DNA of 64,000 nt from contig NZ_CH724131.1 of assembly GCF_000152725.1 (NCBI RefSeq), forward strand, positions 2,565,412 through 2,629,411, in the 5' to 3' direction. The notes beneath the pieces were generated by a model. The model had not been told where the DNA came from. It was given only the letters and a program-made list of their open reading frames with translations, and made no database searches. The DNA comes from Pseudooceanicola batsensis HTCC2597. Its GTDB lineage: Bacteria; Pseudomonadota; Alphaproteobacteria; Rhodobacterales; Rhodobacteraceae. The translations under genes and the position numbers were made by a program. This document shows positions 45,567 through 53,733 of the stretch, piece by piece (positions within the stretch are counted from its first letter, which is position 1; every line of letters starts with the position of its first letter).

Positions 45567-45642
45567 GCCGCTGTAGCTCAGCTGGTAGAGCACGTCATTC
45601 GTAATGATGGGGTCGGGGGTTCGAGTCCCTTCAGCGGCACCA
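45567..45642 (+). tRNA. tRNA-Thr (anticodon CGT)
   Basis: A 76-base tRNA with encoded CCA. The acceptor stem pairs GCCGCTG with CAGCGGC. The D arm is GCTC...GAGC, the anticodon loop TTCGTAA has anticodon CGT (reads ACG, Thr), and the T loop is TTCGAGT. It lies 45 bp after hemY. About 210 bp downstream begins the Tn7-like element, so the gene is a candidate attachment landmark. Confidence 0.95.
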
Positions 45643-45823
45643 CTTTTCCCTCGTAAAGAAGCCGAGACACCCGGAAAAATCCGCAATACAAGGCGTTCGC
45701 GTTATGCCGGGCGTCCGATGCCGAGATCCGGAACCCGGAGGGCCTCCAAAAAGCTCTTCGAGAGGCCGACGAGGCAACCCTCGGATGAGGTGAGATAGGT
45801 CACCTGACCACGCAGCGACGCCG

Positions 45824-45876
45824 CGAAAAACTACGCGCGCGCCTACAACCAATGTAGGGGCGAGGATAATTTTTCG
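45824..45876. repeat. back-to-back Tn7-like transposon ends with 5-bp spacer
   Basis: Two outward-facing 24-base ends flank ACCAA (45,848-45,852). Read outward, both begin TGTAGG, have GCG at the same place and finish with TTTTTCG at the same distance; 19 of 24 positions agree without gaps. The right copy (45,853-45,876) is the start of the tniQ-side element; the left copy (45,824-45,847) would be the right end of another element, now reduced to at most about 205 bp between it and tRNA-Thr. A 5-bp spacer is the target duplication size of the Tn7 family. Confidence 0.75.
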
Positions 45877-45955
45877 TCAGACATTCATAAAAAGTAGTCA
45901 GTTAGCCGGAGACGCGCGATCACATTTTTTCGCGTCGCGCGCGCATATTTTTTCG
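45853..45955 (+). repeat. tRNA-proximal transposon end with repeated transposase-binding motifs
   Basis: After the terminal TGTAGGGGCG come three direct copies of an ATNNTTTTTCG-like motif: 45,866-45,876 (ATAATTTTTCG), 45,922-45,932 (ACATTTTTTCG) and 45,945-45,955 (ATATTTTTTCG), the last two followed by GC-rich GCGTCGCGC / CCGTGCGCC. The layout of terminal TGT-G-rich followed by spaced about 20-bp motifs resembles Tn7 ends, where TnsB binds. From here to the kptA start at 46,080 there is no gene. Confidence 0.7.
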
Positions 45956-46079: not shown

Positions 46080-46619
46080 GTGTCTCGGGAGAGCCGATTT
46101 CTAAGCCTGATACTCCGACACAAGCCGGAAGAGGTTGGCTTGAAATTGGGTCCGGGAGGGTGGGTCCGGATCGATGAGCTTCTCGTCGCCATGAAGCGCG
46201 CGGGGCGGAGACTCACTCGAGATCATCTGATCGAGATCGTCGAGCAAAACGACAAGAAGCGCTTCACGATTTCCTCGGATGGCGAACGAATCAGAGCTGC
46301 GCAAGGCCATTCGCTTGACGTCGACCTTGGTTTGCCAGCCCAAGACCCACCCGATGAACTGTTCCACGGGACCGCTCGCGCCCATCTTGACGAGATCTTC
46401 TCCGCGGGCATCATACCGGGACGCAGACGGCTGGTTCACCTGAGTGTTGACATAGCCACCGCACTGACCGTTGGCGGGCGCCATGGGAAGCCGGTTGTTC
46501 TAACCGTTGCCGCGAAGGCTATGCACCAAGATGGCCACAAGTTTTACCGGGCGGACAACGGGGTCTGGCTCACTGACCATGTGCCCACAAGTTACTTGTC
46601 CTTTGCGACTATCCGATAA
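46080..46619 (+). CDS. kptA: KptA/Tpt1 RNA 2'-phosphotransferase
   Basis: KptA, 179 residues. Tpt1-family enzymes move an internal RNA 2'-phosphate to NAD+, making ADP-ribose 1'',2''-cyclic phosphate; in yeast this finishes tRNA splicing, while its bacterial purpose is unclear. The sequence has SLILRHKPEEVGLKLGPGGW with the catalytic Arg13-His14 pair, KKRFTISSDGERIRAAQGHS, LFHGTARAHLDEIFSAGI and a C-terminal GVWLTDHVPTSYL. All expected active-site residues appear present. It starts at GTG 46,080 (the ATG two bases earlier is out of frame). It lies within the transposon, in the opposite direction to the transposition genes. Confidence 0.93.
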   Translation: MSRESRFLSLILRHKPEEVGLKLGPGGWVRIDELLVAMKRAGRRLTRDHLIEIVEQNDKKRFTISSDGERIRAAQGHSLDVDLGLPAQDPPDELFHGTARAHLDEIFSAGIIPGRRRLVHLSVDIATALTVGGRHGKPVVLTVAAKAMHQDGHKFYRADNGVWLTDHVPTSYLSFATIR

Positions 46620-46972: not shown

Positions 46973-48787
46973 CTATGCCCCTCGAGCCGGGCTGACATCG
47001 AGCACTGCGCCGGCCACGGCAGCTTGTGTAACAAGGTGTCCGCGCCAAGCCTTGCCGTCTTGGAAGGCCCCTACTGTCTCGATGCCGGCCTCATTCAAGC
47101 GGCGGATCAGATAGCGCGAGGTCGTGTCCATCTGCTTGGCGAGTTCACTCAACGGCAGATACATGGACTGGAACCGAAGCAGGCTCTCGAGCCGAATCGT
47201 CCGCCCCGTGCGACCAGCATGATCGTAGGTCTCATGAGCGAGGAGGCCTTGGCTGCACCAGGCCGCGATGCACTGCTCCTTCCAGCCCGTGAGTTGCGCC
47301 ACCTGCTGGACCGTCAAACCAGGGCCACGCCGGACCTCGGTCAGAACTGTTTCGACTTCAGTCCGACAGAAGCGAAACGCTGCGAGGCGTCCCTCGGTGC
47401 TGCCCGCTTCGGGCCGAAGTCGACCATCGATGATCTGTTGGAAGACCTTGATAAGCCCGGCCCTGTCTGTCGTGAAGCGGAGGTTGAGATCGGCGAAGGA
47501 TACAGTGTCCGCTTTCGTTTCCAGCGCAGAACAAGCAATGCCGTGCACGAGAGCACGCATGGCTTCAAGATCATGAGCACCCTCGACGAGCGGCGGCGGC
47601 GCGTCATGAATGCACTGGGCCAGCCCGCCCGCTTCGCCAAGGAGATCATATTGCTTCCGGGAAATGCCCAGAAATTCCCGCGCGCTGGACTTCCCGACGA
47701 AGCGGCGTCGGTTCTCGCGGATTTCCTCAATGGTCCCGCGGGGCAACATCGTATGGCGGTGCCCAAAACCGGACGTATCCTGGCGTCCTTCTATCTGTCC
47801 TCGGCCTACGGCGTCCACCAGACGCTCAGCACGAATGCCCAGGATACGGGAGGATTCGGCAGCGCTGATCCAGTCGCGCTCGCAAGCGGCGACGGGCATA
47901 TTCCCGATATACGGCCCGTCAAACTCCTGGCGAACGACATCTCCCAATGCCTGCCGGAAATCCGCATAAGCGGCACCGTCGAAGGACATAAGGCGCTGAT
48001 ACCACCGTCCGAGCCGGGCCGGTGCTGACGAAGCACTCGGCTCGCCCTCTTGCAGGCGCCGAGCCACGTCATCTCGAAATGCCGTTGGCCAATCGCACAG
48101 AAGACGAAATGTGTCCGCGAGAAAACAGCGCGCTTCTTTGAGGGTGCGCGGCAGAGGCGCCTTGCCTTGCTTCCCGGTGACCGCATCCATGCCCCCACTG
48201 GCGAGAAAGAAAATGAACTCCCCGATATCGGAGGGCGTTCGAAACGCCAGTGCCGGGGACAAGCGGGAGCGAGTAGGGTGCATCTTCCCCGAGATCAGTG
48301 CAGAGATCCTGATCTCGTCGTCATTGGCGGCAATCCGTTCAAGACGATCCAGAGGACAACCGCAATGGCAGGAGTCGTAGCCGCCCCGGCCAGGCAGGAA
48401 AATCTCCTGACACATCGGGCACTGATCGACGAGACGAAGGCCATGTTCGACACAGCATGTGACAAAGGCATGGCGCCAAGATTGATGGTGCGGTTTCCCA
48501 GTGGCCAGACAGTCTGGGCAGACGGGTGCACTGTGATGCCGTTCAAACCGCCAGCTCCGTGAGGGTTCCGATGGTGCGACCGTCGGCGAAATTGGAGCCA
48601 GGGTCCCTGGCTCCAAATCCAACAACTCTTCCGCCTGCGAGGCTTCTTCGATCATGCGGCGCCCGTAGCGCAGCCCGAAACCCGCCTGAAAGCCTGATAC
48701 CTCCGGCCAGAACTCCATTTCAGCAAGCCGGCGCAGAAAGCCATCCAAGCTTTCCTGCGCTTCCGGGGTGCGGGTCGATCGGGTCAT
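46973..48787 (-). CDS. tniQ: TniQ/TnsD-family target-selection protein
   Basis: TniQ, 604 residues, much longer than minimal TniQ and within the TnsD-like size range. The N-terminal TniQ region includes QESLDGFLRRLAEMEFWP. The zinc fingers show CPDC at 90-93, SWRHAFVTCCVEHGLRLVDQ and CPMC at 123-126, with a further Cys cluster at DSCHCGCPL. Later segments look like helix-turn-helix units, such as GLTVQQVAQLTGWKEQCIAA and LSELAKQMDTTSRYLIRRLN. TniQ/TnsD proteins bind the attachment DNA and recruit TnsC. It overlaps tniB by 4 bases (ATGA). A long C-terminus suggests site-specific targeting; the target is not proven. Confidence 0.9.
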   Translation of the reverse strand: MTRSTRTPEAQESLDGFLRRLAEMEFWPEVSGFQAGFGLRYGRRMIEEASQAEELLDLEPGTLAPISPTVAPSEPSRSWRFERHHSAPVCPDCLATGKPHHQSWRHAFVTCCVEHGLRLVDQCPMCQEIFLPGRGGYDSCHCGCPLDRLERIAANDDEIRISALISGKMHPTRSRLSPALAFRTPSDIGEFIFFLASGGMDAVTGKQGKAPLPRTLKEARCFLADTFRLLCDWPTAFRDDVARRLQEGEPSASSAPARLGRWYQRLMSFDGAAYADFRQALGDVVRQEFDGPYIGNMPVAACERDWISAAESSRILGIRAERLVDAVGRGQIEGRQDTSGFGHRHTMLPRGTIEEIRENRRRFVGKSSAREFLGISRKQYDLLGEAGGLAQCIHDAPPPLVEGAHDLEAMRALVHGIACSALETKADTVSFADLNLRFTTDRAGLIKVFQQIIDGRLRPEAGSTEGRLAAFRFCRTEVETVLTEVRRGPGLTVQQVAQLTGWKEQCIAAWCSQGLLAHETYDHAGRTGRTIRLESLLRFQSMYLPLSELAKQMDTTSRYLIRRLNEAGIETVGAFQDGKAWRGHLVTQAAVAGAVLDVSPARGA

Positions 48788-49755
48788 GCAGAGAGAGCCC
48801 CATGCGCAAGATCGAGGCCAGCGAGGCTATCGACGGAGAACTCAAGACCGGCCTCAGCCATGGTGCAGGCGAAAGACCGCAAGATTTCCACCTCGTCCGG
48901 CTCTTCGTCGATGAAAAAGGACGATGTTGGGATACCGGATTGCTGCATGGCTCGGGCCGCAAGCGCGAAGTCAGCGAGCTCCAGGGCCCGAGGTTCTCGC
49001 GTTGCCAGCGCGCAGAGTTTCAGCACGCGCATCATGACGGGGATACGCCCCGCGGAAGCTCCGTAAAGACGGCGCACGATGTCCTCGAACTCTATCGCTA
49101 CAGGGAAGCCTGATTGCTCCAGCTTGTGCAGAGCAACGTCGACCGTGTAAGCAAAAGCGTCACGTTCCGCGTCCACCTGCCAGTCGTAGGGTTTGAGTAT
49201 GGTGGTCGCGCAGGCCCGATCACGAAGTTGCTCGTTCTCATCAATAATGCGCTGGAAACGAGGCAATCCCACCGCGATGACGCTGACGCCGGTCTCGTCG
49301 ACAATGGTCTTCAGATGGTCGGCGGCCTCTCGAGGGGCAAGGTTGGCTCCACGCTCGATCAGATGGTTCACTTCGTCTATCACGACGGCCTGGATGCCGA
49401 GCTGATCTATTGCACGGAATAGTCGATCCCGGACCGACTTCGTGTTTTCATTGGACAAGATGCGCTGACCCATCCCGGCCAAGATGGCACCATAGATGGA
49501 CTTCCCGCTCGATTGCGGGGGCAGGCTGCAATAAACCACATCGTCCATCGGGAAGAGAGATGTGGCGGGCCCTGCGTTCGAAAGCAGATGACGGGCGACC
49601 GACTTCTTCCCCACACGCGTGGGGCCGAGGAGGGGCACCAGGCACCCTCCGAACGCTTGGTTCGTGCTCAACAAGAAATCGACGGAGGACAATGCGCCAC
49701 GGAGCGAGTCGTGCAGCACAATTTCCGAAAGAAGTGAGATGGCGGTGTTGTTCAT
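48784..49755 (-). CDS. tniB: TniB/TnsC-family AAA+ regulator ATPase
   Basis: TniB, 323 residues, an AAA+ ATPase that forms filaments on DNA and links the target selector to the transposase. Walker A is LLGPTRVGKKSVARHLLSN (Gly44-Ser52) and Walker B QAVVIDEVNHLIERG (Asp127, Glu128), followed by sensor 1-type VIAVGLPRF and an arginine in DRACATTILKPYDW. It starts 3 bases after the tniA stop and ends inside tniQ, so tniA-tniB-tniQ is one operon. Expression may be reduced by the insertion in tniA upstream. Confidence 0.92.
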   Translation of the reverse strand: MNNTAISLLSEIVLHDSLRGALSSVDFLLSTNQAFGGCLVPLLGPTRVGKKSVARHLLSNAGPATSLFPMDDVVYCSLPPQSSGKSIYGAILAGMGQRILSNENTKSVRDRLFRAIDQLGIQAVVIDEVNHLIERGANLAPREAADHLKTIVDETGVSVIAVGLPRFQRIIDENEQLRDRACATTILKPYDWQVDAERDAFAYTVDVALHKLEQSGFPVAIEFEDIVRRLYGASAGRIPVMMRVLKLCALATREPRALELADFALAARAMQQSGIPTSSFFIDEEPDEVEILRSFACTMAEAGLEFSVDSLAGLDLAHGALSA

Positions 49756-51440
49756 GGTCTACTCCAAGATGTCCATTTGTGGTCGCTGTTCGCGGCGGCG
49801 AACAGCCATCCTGGGAGTAGGTTGGTTCACCGTCTTCGAAACTGAAGCCGACTTGAGAGGAGGGCTCTTAGCGCGCTCCACCACCTGAGTGATCTTACGG
49901 CGCTGGGCCTCTGCTTTGCGCGCCTTGCGCAGTGATGTGATCTTGCCCTTGCCCCGTTGCTCGGCGAGTTCCTGGGCCTTTTGTGCCAGGTCGGCTGCCG
50001 TAGCGCGGGCTGCCAGATCTTTAGCCTTCGCTTCGTCGCTGGGCTTCTTGATGCGTGCCACGTCTTTGAATGCGATGGGGAGCACATGTTCGCTTTTTGC
50101 AGGGACGATCATCGGATTGGGGACGCCATCCCGATTGTGGACGACCGCAATCGCGCGAATATCTGTCGGATCGTAGCGCACTTCGACTGTGGATTTCCGC
50201 CCGATCTCAGACAAGAGTTCGCAAAGCTCCGGGGACGAGTATTGCACGTTTCCGACATCAAGTCCGTAGTGCTGAAGCGACCGCTTCGTTTCTTTGACCA
50301 TGAAGATCTGGTGCACTTCGTTTGGCTGAAGCGGCAACTGTGCGATACCATTTACCATGCGGTTCCAGCTATCGAGCGGTGACTCAGCCACGCGTAGAGG
50401 CGAGTGAATCAACCGACGAATTTTCGTGGCGTAGACATCGTAGATCCACTTGTAGATCAGGCCCTCAAGCTCTTCGACTGTTATGCATGCTTCGAACATA
50501 CCCTTCTCGATCCGAGCACGGTGTGGCATCGTCTTTGATGTCGTGGCGCCTGGTAAGGTTTGGAGATAACGATTAAGCTCAAGGAAGAACCTTTCCACAT
50601 GCGGCTTCTTCTCCGGGCATCCAGGGATTTTCTTCGCCCATTCCATTCCTGATTGTGCGATGATCCCCGGCAGCCATTTTCCGCTGTTCTCGCTACCCTG
50701 ATCTGAGACCAGGACTCGGGGCACACCAGCTGTGTTGATGCGGTTCTCTATGCCCAGCCTCTCGAAAAACTCCTCACCGCGCGGGAGCATAATTTCCTTA
50801 ATGGTTTGGATCGTCAGTTTTTCGCTGGCCGATTCCAAGTCTATCCGAATTGCGAGGGGAAAACCGGATGCAGCATCGATCGCGGCACATATCACTGGCC
50901 GGCCGATGCAGACGCCTCGAATGTCGGACAGGAACACATCACCCACGGTAGAGTCGATCTCCACTACGTCAAAGGGCACCTCCACGCGCGCATAGAAGCG
51001 CGCCTGTAGCGTCAAACGCTTGGCCGTCTCGGTATCGTGGCGGGCCCTGATGACGTCATCCGCACGAAGCGTATTCATCACTGAGAGAAACGATCGCAGA
51101 GCACAGTCGCCGAGCTTTTCCTTGGTGCCAGTATACCGATCGCGATAGAGTTTCTCAGCCTTCGCTGCGGCTACTCGTATCGTTACTCGATCGCTTTTCA
51201 GAAGCAGCTGCTCCAGCACTTCGAAGACACAATCTTCATAGTCTGCGTCATGCCGAGGCCCGAACTGCCCTTGGTCTTGATTGTGTGGAATTAGCCTGTT
51301 GGGGCCCTCATCACCCAAGGTCTTCTTCCACATCTGTAGCGTGCGAATGTTGAACGAAGACGGGGCGTAAGAAGCGTGTCGCGCATCTTCCAGCAGTTCG
51401 CCTTTGAGGATTTCTGACCTGCCCCCTGCCGGTCCCTCAT

Positions 51441-52349
51441 TCATAACGAGAGTCTGCAGTTTGGATTTGGGTATTCCGGTTCTCCGTCTGGCGCAAGCGC
51501 GCCGGGCGCGGAGCCCTCAATTTGCTCAAGCGCCCGCCGCGCTTGCTGCGGCGTCTGGTTGCCGAGCGACGAGTGTGGCCTGACCGTGTTGTAATCGTAG
51601 CGCCACAAGGCCAGCTTGCGGCGTGCATCGTCCAGGCTGTCGAATATCTCCTCGTTCAAGAGCTCGTCGCGCAGGCTGCCGTTGAAGCTCTCGATGAAGG
51701 CGTTCTGCTGCGGCTTGCCCGGATCGATGTAGTGCCAGGGCACCCTGTTCTCGTCAGCCCATTTCAGGATGGCCCGACTGGTGAACTCCGTCCCGTTATC
51801 ACTGACAATGCAGCCCGGCTGTCCGTAGACCCGGATCAGGGCGCTGAGTTCCCGGGCCACTCGTGCGCCCGACAGACTCGTGTCCGCGATGAGGCACAGG
51901 CATTCCCGCGTGCAGTCGTCGATTACGGCGAGGATGCGGAACTTCCGCGAGGCGCCGAAACTGTCGGACACGAAGTCCAGGGACCAGCGCGCGTTGGGAC
52001 ACGCGGCAACGGGCATCGGTGCTCTGGTGCCGCGCGTCCGTTTCCGGCCGCGGCGCCGTTTTACCGACAACCCTTCCTCACGGTAAATGCGATACAGCTT
52101 CTTGTGGTTCATGATCATGCCCTTGCGTTCCAGCAATATGCCGATCCGGCGATAGCCGAACCGACGCCGCTTGCCGGCGATCTCCTGCATCTCCTTGCGG
52201 ATCTCAGCACTGTCCGGCGGGCGGTCTCGCCGGACAGTCTTGGGATCGACACCGACCAGCCTGCAGGCCCGGCGCTGCGAGATGTCGTGATCCCGCATCA
52301 CTCGGAGCGCCGCGTCTCGCCGCTTGGTCAACGTCGTCAGCTCTTTCCC
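51441..52349 (-). CDS. IS3-family transposase OrfB (DDE integrase domain)
   Basis: The catalytic part of the IS3-type transposase, about 300 residues after the frameshift point. The rve integrase core has Asp in [20 protein letters not shown], Asp in [15 protein letters not shown] and Glu in [17 protein letters not shown], with [18 protein letters not shown] at the end. It is normally made as OrfAB by a -1 slip on GGGAAAG (52,343-52,349), giving 386 residues in total. The coding region looks intact. Confidence 0.95.
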
Positions 52350-52600
52350 AGCAGGTCTTTCAAGACAACGTTGTCCAGCATCGTATCCGCCAGCAGGCGC
52401 TTGAGCTTGGCGTTCTCGTCCTCGAGGGCTTTCAGCCTGGCCGCCTCGGACACTTCCATGCCGCCATACTTGGACTTCAGCTTGTAGAAGGTCGCCGTGC
52501 TCAGCCCATGCCTGCGGCACACCTCGGCTGTCGGCATACCGGCTTCCTGCTCCTTGATCATCCCGATTATCTGCGCCTCGGTGAAACGGCTCTTTCGCAT
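52337..52600 (-). CDS. IS3-family OrfA helix-turn-helix protein
   Basis: OrfA, 87 residues: a Tnp_1-type helix-turn-helix ([20 protein letters not shown], then [20 protein letters not shown]) followed by a leucine zipper ([20 protein letters not shown]). It binds the IS ends. The slippery heptamer GGGAAAG lies 4 bases before its stop and places OrfB in the -1 frame. Confidence 0.95.
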
Positions 52601-52604
52601 TCGT

Positions 52605-52730
52605 CTGCTCCTTCAGAGTTGGCGCAGACTCTACATCATGGTGAGGGATTTCGCGGGGGGCAGGTCACTGCTCCTTCAGAGTTGGCGCAGACTCTACATC
52701 ATGGTGAGGGATTTCGCGGGGGGCAGGTCA
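52605..52730 (-). repeat. 63-bp tandem duplication of the IS right end
   Basis: Two perfect 63-bp copies (52,605-52,667 and 52,668-52,730), each from CTGCTCCTTCAGAG to the terminal GGGGGGCAGGTCA. Both copies contain a full IS tip, and only the outer one borders the TTTC duplication. Confidence 0.97.
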
Positions 52731-53017
52731 TTTCGAATGCGCGTGCGGCGCTGTTGCCGTTCGCACGGAGTTCCGCATCACGCCGGATGGCTGCCAACTT
52801 CATTTCTTGTTTGCGCCGCCCGTATTCGTCGGGGATGAAGTCGATGACGTTGCTGCTATCAGGCTTCGTGGCGAAACCCTCTGCGATGAGGTCTCGATAG
52901 AGCTGGAAATCCACCTCCACCAACTTCCCGGCCTGATCCCTGAGGGTCACCGACTTGCCGGCGCGAACTACAAAAGTCAGGCTCGCATCGCGGCGCCAGC
53001 CATGAAGAGCGGCGAGC

Positions 53018-53218
53018 TTAGCGGCAGACAAGGGGCAATTCCTTCAGGTGTGCGCTTGTGTCTCCTGTGGCGAAGATCAGCGTGTCGTGATTGATGCGAG
53101 CCGAACGCACATCGCAGGTGAGCTGCCCCGCTGCGATGGCACGCAGCAAACTTGCCTCGTTGAATCCCGCTGCCTTGAAATCACCGTAGGGCTTTCCCGC
53201 ACCACAGAATGCCGCCAT
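53018..53218 (-). CDS. small ORF between tnsA and tniA
   Basis: A 66-residue frame beginning MAAFCGAGKPYGDFKAAGFN and including NEASLLRAIAAGQL, which could be a short DNA-binding helix pair. No family recognised. Support for being real: it fills the gap between tnsA and tniA on the same strand, it overlaps tniA by 14 bases, and the tniA ribosome-binding site lies within it, as for coupled genes. An N-terminal extension with a non-ATG start is possible. It could instead be a remnant of the tniA N-terminus in another frame. Confidence 0.45.
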   Translation of the reverse strand: MAAFCGAGKPYGDFKAAGFNEASLLRAIAAGQLTCDVRSARINHDTLIFATGDTSAHLKELPLVCR

Positions 53219-53262: not shown

Positions 53263-53733
53263 TTAAGAGCCGTAATTCTGAACGTAGTTTTCCCCAAGGA
53301 GGAGATCGTCGATGATGATGAGGCGATAGCCGTAGCGCGCGAGGATCTCCGGGTAGCTGAGGATCTTGGGGTTCAGGGTGATTAGCTCGCGGTGCTTGAC
53401 CTCGACCAGCACTTTAGAGTTCCCCAGGTGCACCTCGAAATCGGGTGTGTATTTCACTGCGCGAAACCCATAGAGCCGCTCGGCTTGCTGAAGAGCGTCC
53501 ACGCTGTGATAGTTTCGTCCCGTCGCGAGATCGAAGGTCATGGGCTGTGAGCGCAGAGACCGGACCCTGGGGTCGAGCCCCATAGCGATTGCGCCGCTTG
53601 CCTCCAGTCGGCTCTCCAGCTGCATCAGATGCGCGCCTCCCGCTGAAGTATAGTGAGCTTTCTTGAGCTGCCCACGCTTCTGGACGTTCCGCGCGACCGG
53701 ATGCGATTTCCGGTCCATTTTCATGCCATACAC
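53263..53733 (-). CDS. tnsA: TnsA-like endonuclease, catalytic domain only
   Basis: A 156-residue TnsA-type nuclease, which nicks the 5' ends of the transposon to give cut-and-paste movement together with the DDE transposase. The PD-(D/E)XK site is read as Glu in LMQLESRLEASGAIA (residues 40-44), Asp98 in KYTPDFEVHLGN and Glu111-Val-Lys113 in VLVEVKHRE. The length covers only the N-terminal catalytic domain of E. coli TnsA (273 residues); the C-terminal TnsC-contacting domain is absent. It is the first transposition gene, 44 bases before the small ORF and divergent from a second nuclease gene. Confidence 0.85.
   Translation of the reverse strand: MYGMKMDRKSHPVARNVQKRGQLKKAHYTSAGGAHLMQLESRLEASGAIAMGLDPRVRSLRSQPMTFDLATGRNYHSVDALQQAERLYGFRAVKYTPDFEVHLGNSKVLVEVKHRELITLNPKILSYPEILARYGYRLIIIDDLLLGENYVQNYGS

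What the first reader, a model, noticed from the sequence alone, without database searches (positions are those of the whole stretch)
45824..45876. Two Tn7-like ends abut with exactly 5 bp between them
Outward-facing 24-base ends agree at 19 positions without gaps and are separated by ACCAA. Five bases is the Tn7-family target duplication. The tRNA-side end cannot belong to the tniQ element and has at most about 205 bp of DNA behind it before tRNA-Thr, so it is probably the remnant of an earlier, related element at the same site. This points to repeated use of one attachment site and to tandem insertion, against the target immunity expected of close relatives.
Basis: partly seen in the sequence, partly recalled or inferred. 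Interest (0 to 1): 0.8.

Follow-up and report, generated by a model that had tools for sequence, protein, structure and literature searches.

The report
Stacked Tn7-like elements behind gyrB
A Tn7-like mobile element carrying anti-phage-type genes landed right after the gyrase gene gyrB, exactly where an older related element had landed before, so the ends of the two now almost touch; similar stacking in a few other bacteria offers natural material for asking how such elements sense an occupied site.

Summary
The 24-5-24 structure is real: the left end of a Tn7-like element, 5 bp, then the end of an older one. But the attachment site is gyrB, not tRNA-Thr. The far end lies outside the window, carries the same ACCAA and abuts the gyrB stop codon; the element is 28,620 bp. 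In the family, 30 of 394 genomes match gyrB-stop/4-6 bp/TGTAGG (4 control matches), 28 at true gyrB. Of ten alphaproteobacterial TniQ relatives, nine genomes show an end behind gyrB; in the tenth the contig stops at the matching duplication. The tRNA-side end matches gyrB-adjacent right ends of other genera at 28-29 of 29 bases, this element's own ends at 19-20. So two lineages used one site in succession, the newer inserting between gyrB and the older. Three more such seams were found: Tropicimonas, Roseibium album and genome G010, the last with unmatched flanking bases. In all four the two elements' right ends differ, so evasion of target immunity is not shown. Why the remnant adjoins tRNA-Thr is unresolved.

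The parts
45567..45642 (+). tRNA-Thr (CGT); neighbour of the junction, not the attachment site
   Evidence: ARAGORN; none of 20 relatives carries a recognisable end or tns match behind it
45643..45818 (.). 176 bp of unresolved origin between tRNA-Thr and the certain part of the remnant end; single copy in the genome
   Evidence: own-genome search with 45643-45847 finds only itself below E 0.2
45819..45847 (-). terminal 29 bp of the right end of an older gyrB-type element (one TnsB-like site); the remnant may extend further towards the tRNA
   Evidence: 29/29 identical to the gyrB-adjacent right end of G092, 28/29 to Tropicimonas and G399
45848..45852 (.). ACCAA, 5-bp target duplication of the newer element; second copy at window-equivalent 74473-74477 beside the gyrB stop codon
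45853..64000 (.). newer Tn7-like element, 28,620 bp in all; it leaves the window and ends at window-equivalent 74472
   Evidence: both ends and both ACCAA copies
45853..45955 (+). left end of the newer element, TnsB-like sites at 45861, 45917 and 45940
46080..46619 (+). kptA-like RNA 2'-phosphotransferase (cargo)
   Evidence: Pfam PF01885, E 4e-47; also between tniQ and the left end in Mesobaculum
46973..48787 (-). tniQ (TnsD-like target selector, 604 aa)
   Evidence: Pfam TniQ E 9.5e-9; no NCBIfam match; five best fold matches are TniQ
48784..49755 (-). tnsC (TniB/AAA ATPase, 323 aa)
   Evidence: Pfam TniB E 3.6e-19; no NCBIfam match
49759..51414 (-). 3' part of tnsB, interrupted by an IS
   Evidence: Pfam Mu-transpos_C; relative L184 has an unbroken 650-aa frame there
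51415..52730 (-). IS3-family insertion sequence inside tnsB, with a 63-bp duplication at one end
   Evidence: NCBIfam transpos_IS3 E 1.3e-70; inverted repeats; repeat D2
52731..53031 (-). 5' part of tnsB (approximate start)
   Evidence: open frame; assignment inferred from position
53263..53733 (-). tnsA, 156-aa frame; the relative's frame is 238 aa, so this copy looks shortened by a frame change
   Evidence: Pfam Tn7_TnsA-like_N E 4.6e-4, below its cut-off; 99% to L184
56193..62480 (+). Hhe/PDC-S37-like DUF4011 helicase-nuclease, a candidate anti-phage protein (cargo)
   Evidence: PADLOC matches; NCBIfam Hhe_antiphage 1046 bits, below its cut-off of 2000

Best explanation
The site is the seam between two Tn7-like insertions made in succession at one attachment site, the 3' end of gyrB. 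An older element inserted with its right end 5 bp behind the gyrB stop codon. A second element of another lineage, still present as 28.6 kb (R end - defence-type cargo - tnsA-B-C-tniQ - kptA - L end), was then directed by its TniQ to the same place. It inserted between gyrB and the old right end, duplicating the same 5 bp (TTGGT/ACCAA), so its left end now faces the older right end across exactly 5 bp. At some time the body of the older element was lost or moved away, and a rearrangement put its remaining right end beside tRNA-Thr. Shown: both ends of the newer element, both target duplications, gyrB adjacency, and identity of the remnant to gyrB right ends elsewhere. Inferred: TniQ recognises gyrB coding sequence, the order of the two insertions, and the rearrangement. 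The present copy looks immobile (tnsB interrupted, tnsA shortened).
For: Far end followed by ACCAA and then the gyrB stop. 28 of 30 family pattern hits are at true gyrB ends; of the 28, 22 have 5 bp and 6 have 6 bp between stop and TGTAGG (rows; one search counts 22 and 8 with the two dropped rows in). Right and left ends with matching 5-bp duplications at gyrB in G005, G023, G088, Roseovarius, Mesobaculum and Tropicimonas, and across split contigs in Roseibium and a Rhodobacterales MAG; 4 of 5 bases match in G008. Of ten alphaproteobacterial TniQ relatives nine are in genomes with an end behind gyrB and the tenth's gyrB contig stops at a duplication matching its left end; in seven of the ten TniQ and gyrB share a contig. 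The remnant is 29/29 and 28/29 identical to gyrB right ends of other genera. Four end-to-end seams in about 789 kb of mostly gyrB-downstream DNA, all with TnsB-like repeats on reading.
Against: No genome was found with the older element alone, so the intermediate states were not seen in one species. gyrB and tRNA-Thr are about 21 to 421 kb apart in the 15 genus relatives where both are on one contig, so a further rearrangement must be assumed. Most gyrB ends cannot be tied to this TniQ: 6 of 36 genomes chosen for gyrB ends (the window's own among them, and two that proved not to be gyrB) match it, one of these only as a fragment and two weakly and away from gyrB; tns genes were recognised in 3 of 27 gyrB-downstream stretches, 18 of which were 15 kb or longer. 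Several of the 28 gyrB hits show no clear TnsB-like repeats. G010's flanking bases do not match (GGGGT at the R end, TGGGGG at the seam).
Confidence: 0.92

Rival explanations
1. tRNA-Thr is the attachment site, and both elements targeted it.
For: The junction lies 205 bp from tRNA-Thr, and tRNA genes are attachment sites of some Tn7-like elements (PMC11406308 and PMC10293859, passages seen).
Against: None of 20 relatives has a recognisable end within 1 kb behind tRNA-Thr or tns matches in the stretch fetched, whereas gyrB carries ends in 7 of 20 genus relatives (leaving out one palindrome in G006) and up to 28 of 394 family genomes.
Confidence: 0.02
2. The tRNA-side end is a displaced copy of the present element's own right or left end, left by an abortive or one-ended event.
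For: It has the same TGTAGG-N11-TTTTTCG layout.
Against: It matches the element's own ends at 19-20 of 29 bases but ends of other genera at 28-29.
Confidence: 0.02
3. The inverted repeat is a transcription terminator or another chance palindrome of the intergenic region.
For: gyrB 3' regions can hold perfect palindromes (G006), and the bare 12-base core is not commoner than its control.
Against: Exact 28.6-kb element with matching duplications and cross-genus identity of the remnant.
Confidence: 0.02
4. The stacked insertions really defeat target immunity between close relatives.
For: Four seams with ends 4 to 6 bp apart; the older end in G010 still shows several TnsB-like repeats on reading.
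Against: In the four the two elements' right ends differ (18-23 of 29), and no stacked pair with near-identical ends was found.
Confidence: 0.15

Closest known systems
Tn7 (tnsABC+tnsD, attTn7 behind glmS)
   Same: tnsA-B-C plus a TniQ/TnsD selector, 5-bp duplication, TGT...ACA ends with several TnsB sites, one-way insertion behind an essential gene (Tn7 facts: PMC2918618 abstract and passages; PMC6360697 passages); the tnsA side faces the target gene (recalled for Tn7).
   Different: The target gene is gyrB; insertion is 5-6 bp after the stop rather than about 20-25 bp; most cargo lies between the gyrB-side end and tnsA; no tnsE was noticed among the ORFs scanned, which were not all.
parE-targeting type I-F3 CAST (two TniQ proteins)
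   Same: A TniQ directs insertion beside parE, a paralogue of gyrB (PMC11406308 passage; the paralogy is recalled).
   Different: That system has CRISPR-Cas and a second TniQ; here one tniQ was found and no Cas protein was noticed among the ORFs scanned (not an exhaustive search).
Tn7-like transposons with defence cargo (Benler et al. 2021, PMC8649781)
   Same: Defence-type cargo and an IS3-family insertion, both described there as common (passages).
   Different: 'gyr' and 'gyrase' do not occur in its main text; stacked elements are not mentioned in the passages seen. Supplements were not looked at.
Tandem Tn7-like elements at attTn7 (recalled from reviews by Parks and Peters; not read, one not held)
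   Same: Several elements stacked at one attachment site.
   Different: Not checked here; base-level seams could not be compared.

Membership tests
Tn7-like transposon (TniQ clade) | tnsA, tnsB, tnsC and tniQ side by side in one direction | tested here: met
   in the window copy tnsA is short and tnsB is interrupted
Tn7-like transposon (TniQ clade) | 5-bp target duplication | tested here: met
   ACCAA at both ends; exact pairs in eight other insertions, two of them across split contigs; 4 of 5 in G008, no match in G010
Tn7-like transposon (TniQ clade) | TGT...ACA ends with several TnsB-binding sites | tested here: met
   sequence repeats at both ends; binding itself not testable here
Tn7-like transposon (TniQ clade) | site- and orientation-specific insertion behind a conserved gene | tested here: met
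   gyrB, 5-6 bp after the stop
Tn7-like transposon (TniQ clade) | transposition activity directed by TniQ/TnsD | not testable with these tools
   needs a bench assay
Target immunity of Tn7 | insertion near a cognate end is inhibited | tested here: inconclusive
   four stacked pairs, with differing right ends; no functional data
tRNA-targeting Tn7-like element | ends lie behind the tRNA gene in relatives | tested here: not met
   none of 20 at tRNA-Thr; other tRNA genes not tested
Tn5053/Tn402 family | no tnsA (recalled) | tested here: not met
   a TnsA homologue is present (weak Pfam score, but 99% to a 238-aa relative)
CRISPR-associated transposon | Cas effector genes inside the element | tested here: inconclusive
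   none among the ORFs scanned, but not every ORF of the 28.6 kb was scanned

The most novel reading that the evidence does not exclude
The gyrB 3' end is a shared attachment site, widespread in this window's family and present also in Roseibium, for several Tn7-like lineages with different end sequences. Occupancy is sensed only by cognate TnsB, so lineages stack on one another in order of arrival while copies of one lineage exclude each other, leaving a layered record of successive defence islands.
Probability: 0.45. Interest if true: 0.65.

Novelty: new variant of a known kind. Interest (0 to 1): 0.5.

Why it matters
It places a Tn7-like attachment site at gyrB, with exact duplications in several genera. 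It also supplies four natural seams where one element's end lies 4-6 bp from another's. Such seams let one ask whether Tn7-type target immunity depends on a match between TnsB and the resident end, by comparing cognate and non-cognate resident ends. For annotation, islands found behind gyrB could be ordered in time by their position.

Tried and rejected
The bare core CCTACA-N5-TGTAGG as evidence: 3 places against 32 for the control in the genus. A simple inversion between tRNA-Thr and gyrB, using G008: gene order is too shuffled to decide. The rest of the older element: the 205-bp stretch is unique in the genome; in Roseibium no far left end of the older element was found in the 53 kb scanned with a narrow motif. 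The G006 gyrB palindrome was first taken for an end and dropped, because it reads as one perfect palindrome. Two family pattern hits (G369, G145) showed no gyrB match and were dropped. Left-end candidates in G360 and G003, and an extra one in G005, were dropped for lack of TnsB-like repeats on reading; the G088 left end was kept on its exact duplication, its repeats being weaker. In one search a mistyped pattern gave no rows; it was corrected. The first family search for seams used too short a gap and missed the window itself, so it was discarded (5 of 394 genomes matched, none kept). Its repeat matched 6 of 394 genomes, while the reversed control matched more; of the six, the window genome and G402 (Tropicimonas) are real by inspection and the other four show no TnsB-like repeats; it could not see 6-bp seams such as G010's. 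The scan allowed one mismatch in the 12 core bases, so more decayed seams would be missed. The first tRNA motif test covered only TTT-type ends and was widened. The TniQ model is of middling quality (mean pLDDT 74.6, pTM 0.40) and its best fold matches have low TM-scores (0.25-0.38).

Full report
Observation. The two 24-base arms, 45824-45847 and 45853-45876, pair at 19 of 24 positions around ACCAA. Within a 276-kb stretch of the host genome no other 24-5-24 site reaches 19, and none did in 20 simulations.

Where the element ends. A pattern built on the end finds three sites in the whole genome: the two arms and one 28.6 kb further on. That third end is followed by ACCAA and then, directly, by the stop codon of gyrB on the opposite strand. 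The element is 28,620 bp with ACCAA on both sides. From gyrB the order is right end, cargo, tnsA, tnsB, tnsC, tniQ, kptA, left end. tnsB is interrupted by an IS3-family insertion (51415-52730) and tnsA is shorter than in a 96%-TniQ relative, whose frames are 238 aa and 650 aa. This copy is probably immobile. Cargo includes an Hhe/PDC-S37-like protein and, outside the window, HerA-like and UvrD/GajB-type proteins.

The attachment site. In the genus, 7 of 20 relatives with a readable gyrB end have a Tn7-like end 5-6 bp behind gyrB, six with TGTAGG and one with TGCGGG (by reading; a palindrome in G006 was not counted). In the family, 30 of 394 genomes match gyrB-stop/4-6 bp/TGTAGG, against 4 matches for the reversed pattern; 28 of the 30 are gyrB by protein match, 22 with 5 bp and 6 with 6 bp. 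Several of the 28 (G110, G182, G257, G264, G295, G332) show no clear TnsB-like repeats on reading, so 28 is an upper figure for true ends; chance alone would give about 0.3 (from assumed base composition). A pattern-based search of GTDB contigs with three TniQ sequences returned 11 loci, two of which are G008 and G005 again. In nine of the ten alphaproteobacterial ones gyrB is followed by 5-6 bp and TGTAGG; in the tenth, a MAG, the gyrB contig stops at CACGG, which also follows that element's left end. Contig lengths put TniQ and gyrB on one contig in seven of the ten. The eleventh, Undibacterium (23% identity), also has gyrB on a contig of the same length, about 22 kb from TniQ, but its ends were not resolved. 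tRNA-Thr shows nothing of the kind in 20 relatives: no recognisable end within 1 kb and no tns match in the fetched stretch (an IS3-family match in one).

What the tRNA-side end is. Its terminal 29 bases are identical to the gyrB right end of G092, and 28 of 29 match Tropicimonas and G399. All 25 rows with 24 or more matches in the fetched DNA (several loci overlap) lie either directly behind gyrB or at a seam. It matches this element's own right and left ends at 20 and 19 of 29. It is therefore the right end of an older gyrB element from another lineage. Similarity to G092 stops after about 29 bases; how far the remnant reaches towards the tRNA is not known.

Stacking elsewhere. A scan of about 789 kb, mostly gyrB-downstream and partly scanned twice, for diverging ends 3-8 bp apart found four seams, one listed twice through overlapping loci: the window; Tropicimonas sp. 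IMCC34011, with GGCGA at gyrB and at the seam and tnsA, B, C and tniQ matches between (G402 is taken to be this strain from equal contig length and sequence); Roseibium album, with CCTTT at gyrB and at the seam but on two contigs, and the newer insertion shifted by one base; and G010, where the flanks do not match and no tns gene was recognised in 40 kb, so its left end may belong to a third element. Eleven insertions have a located left end (window, G005, G008, G010, G023, G088, Roseovarius, Mesobaculum, a MAG, Roseibium, Tropicimonas); four of the eleven are stacked. Nine of the eleven have exact 5-bp pairs, one has 4 of 5 (G008), one does not match (G010). The sample was chosen for gyrB ends and for TniQ similarity, so 4 of 11 is not a population frequency. 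The older partner was not seen whole in any of the four.

Mechanism. The best account is Tn7-like targeting of a gene end by TniQ. A selector bound to gyrB coding sequence would place every new insertion at the same base, between gyrB and whatever is already there; this explains both the 5-bp spacing and the order. Tn7's TnsD binds the last 36 bp of glmS and insertion follows about 20-25 bp further on (PMC2918618, abstract and passages). By analogy the site here would lie inside gyrB (inference). The TniQ model has TniQ structures as its five best matches, at low TM-scores (also by sequence), and a C-terminal half of helix-turn-helix-like units (the reading of the units is mine; Pfam gives one HTH_17). 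Against a single selector: only 6 of 36 genomes chosen for gyrB ends match this TniQ, the window's own among them, and tns genes were recognised in 3 of 27 gyrB-downstream stretches. Most gyrB ends thus belong to more distant or decayed elements.

Target immunity. A review states that Tn7 inhibits a second insertion near a resident copy (PMC11406308, passages). The four seams do not contradict this: older and newer right ends share only 20, 23, 23 and 18 of 29 bases, and in each case the older end's best match is a gyrB end of another genome (in Roseibium by a single base). The mean for 703 pairs of gyrB ends is 18.0 (SD 4.1). Cognate-only immunity fits but is untested, and with four cases the pattern could be chance.

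Literature. Five searches combining Tn7 or Tn7-like terms with gyrB or gyrase subunit B showed no description of gyrB as an attachment site in the titles and abstract openings listed; three of the lists were capped (25 of 1,345, 10 of 21 and 10 of 22 papers). Word searches inside PMC10293859 and PMC8649781 found no 'gyrase', and PMC12452197 uses gyrB only for phylogeny. Searches on tandem elements and immunity gave nothing I could use beyond the review. Only listings, abstracts and passages were seen; a main review on Tn7 elements is not held. A gyrB site may be reported in supplements or in papers not held.

Open. Why the remnant lies beside tRNA-Thr. In 15 genus relatives with both on one contig, gyrB and tRNA-Thr are about 21 to 421 kb apart, so a rearrangement or deletion with one break inside the older element is likely but was not traced.

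Noticed in passing
L175 (G023), about 6.3 kb behind gyrB: A 6.3-kb stretch with both Tn7-like ends and an exact CGGGG duplication but no tns gene recognised; it carries glutathione S-transferase, hydrolase and HxlR-type genes. Possibly a cargo-only element moved in trans, or a decayed one.
   Followed up: partly
L161/L167 (G342): Decaying element at gyrB: a TnsA frame followed almost at once by a C-terminal TniQ fragment 55% identical to the window's; no tnsB or tnsC match in the stretch.
   Followed up: partly
window 46080-46619 and L187 12100-12624: kptA-like gene between tniQ and the left end in both the window element and Mesobaculum (62% identity), suggesting a conserved passenger.
   Followed up: no
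L061 (G006), behind gyrB: Perfect palindrome of 46 bp directly behind gyrB, likely a terminator, easily mistaken for two abutting ends.
   Followed up: partly
L016 (G004) and L024 (G003): A 38-nt identical piece of tRNA-Thr lies upstream of the complete tRNA gene, as an integrase-type element might leave.
   Followed up: no
L194/L203 (Undibacterium curvum): A distant TniQ (23%) lies about 22 kb behind gyrB on a contig of the same length, with repeated TGCAATC-type motifs after the gyrB stop; gyrB targeting may reach betaproteobacteria.
   Followed up: partly
L184 11865-12026: A second fragment resembling the TniQ C-terminus follows the intact tniQ in the Maritimibacter MAG, perhaps the trace of another older element.
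   Followed up: no
window 52605-52730: 63-bp perfect tandem duplication including one end of the IS3-family element.
   Followed up: no
L117, L118, L223: Bare CCTACA-N5-TGTAGG palindromes elsewhere; the sequence beside L223 reads like the start of a MerR-type regulator, so such cores may be MerR-type operators rather than transposon ends (reading from recall).
   Followed up: no
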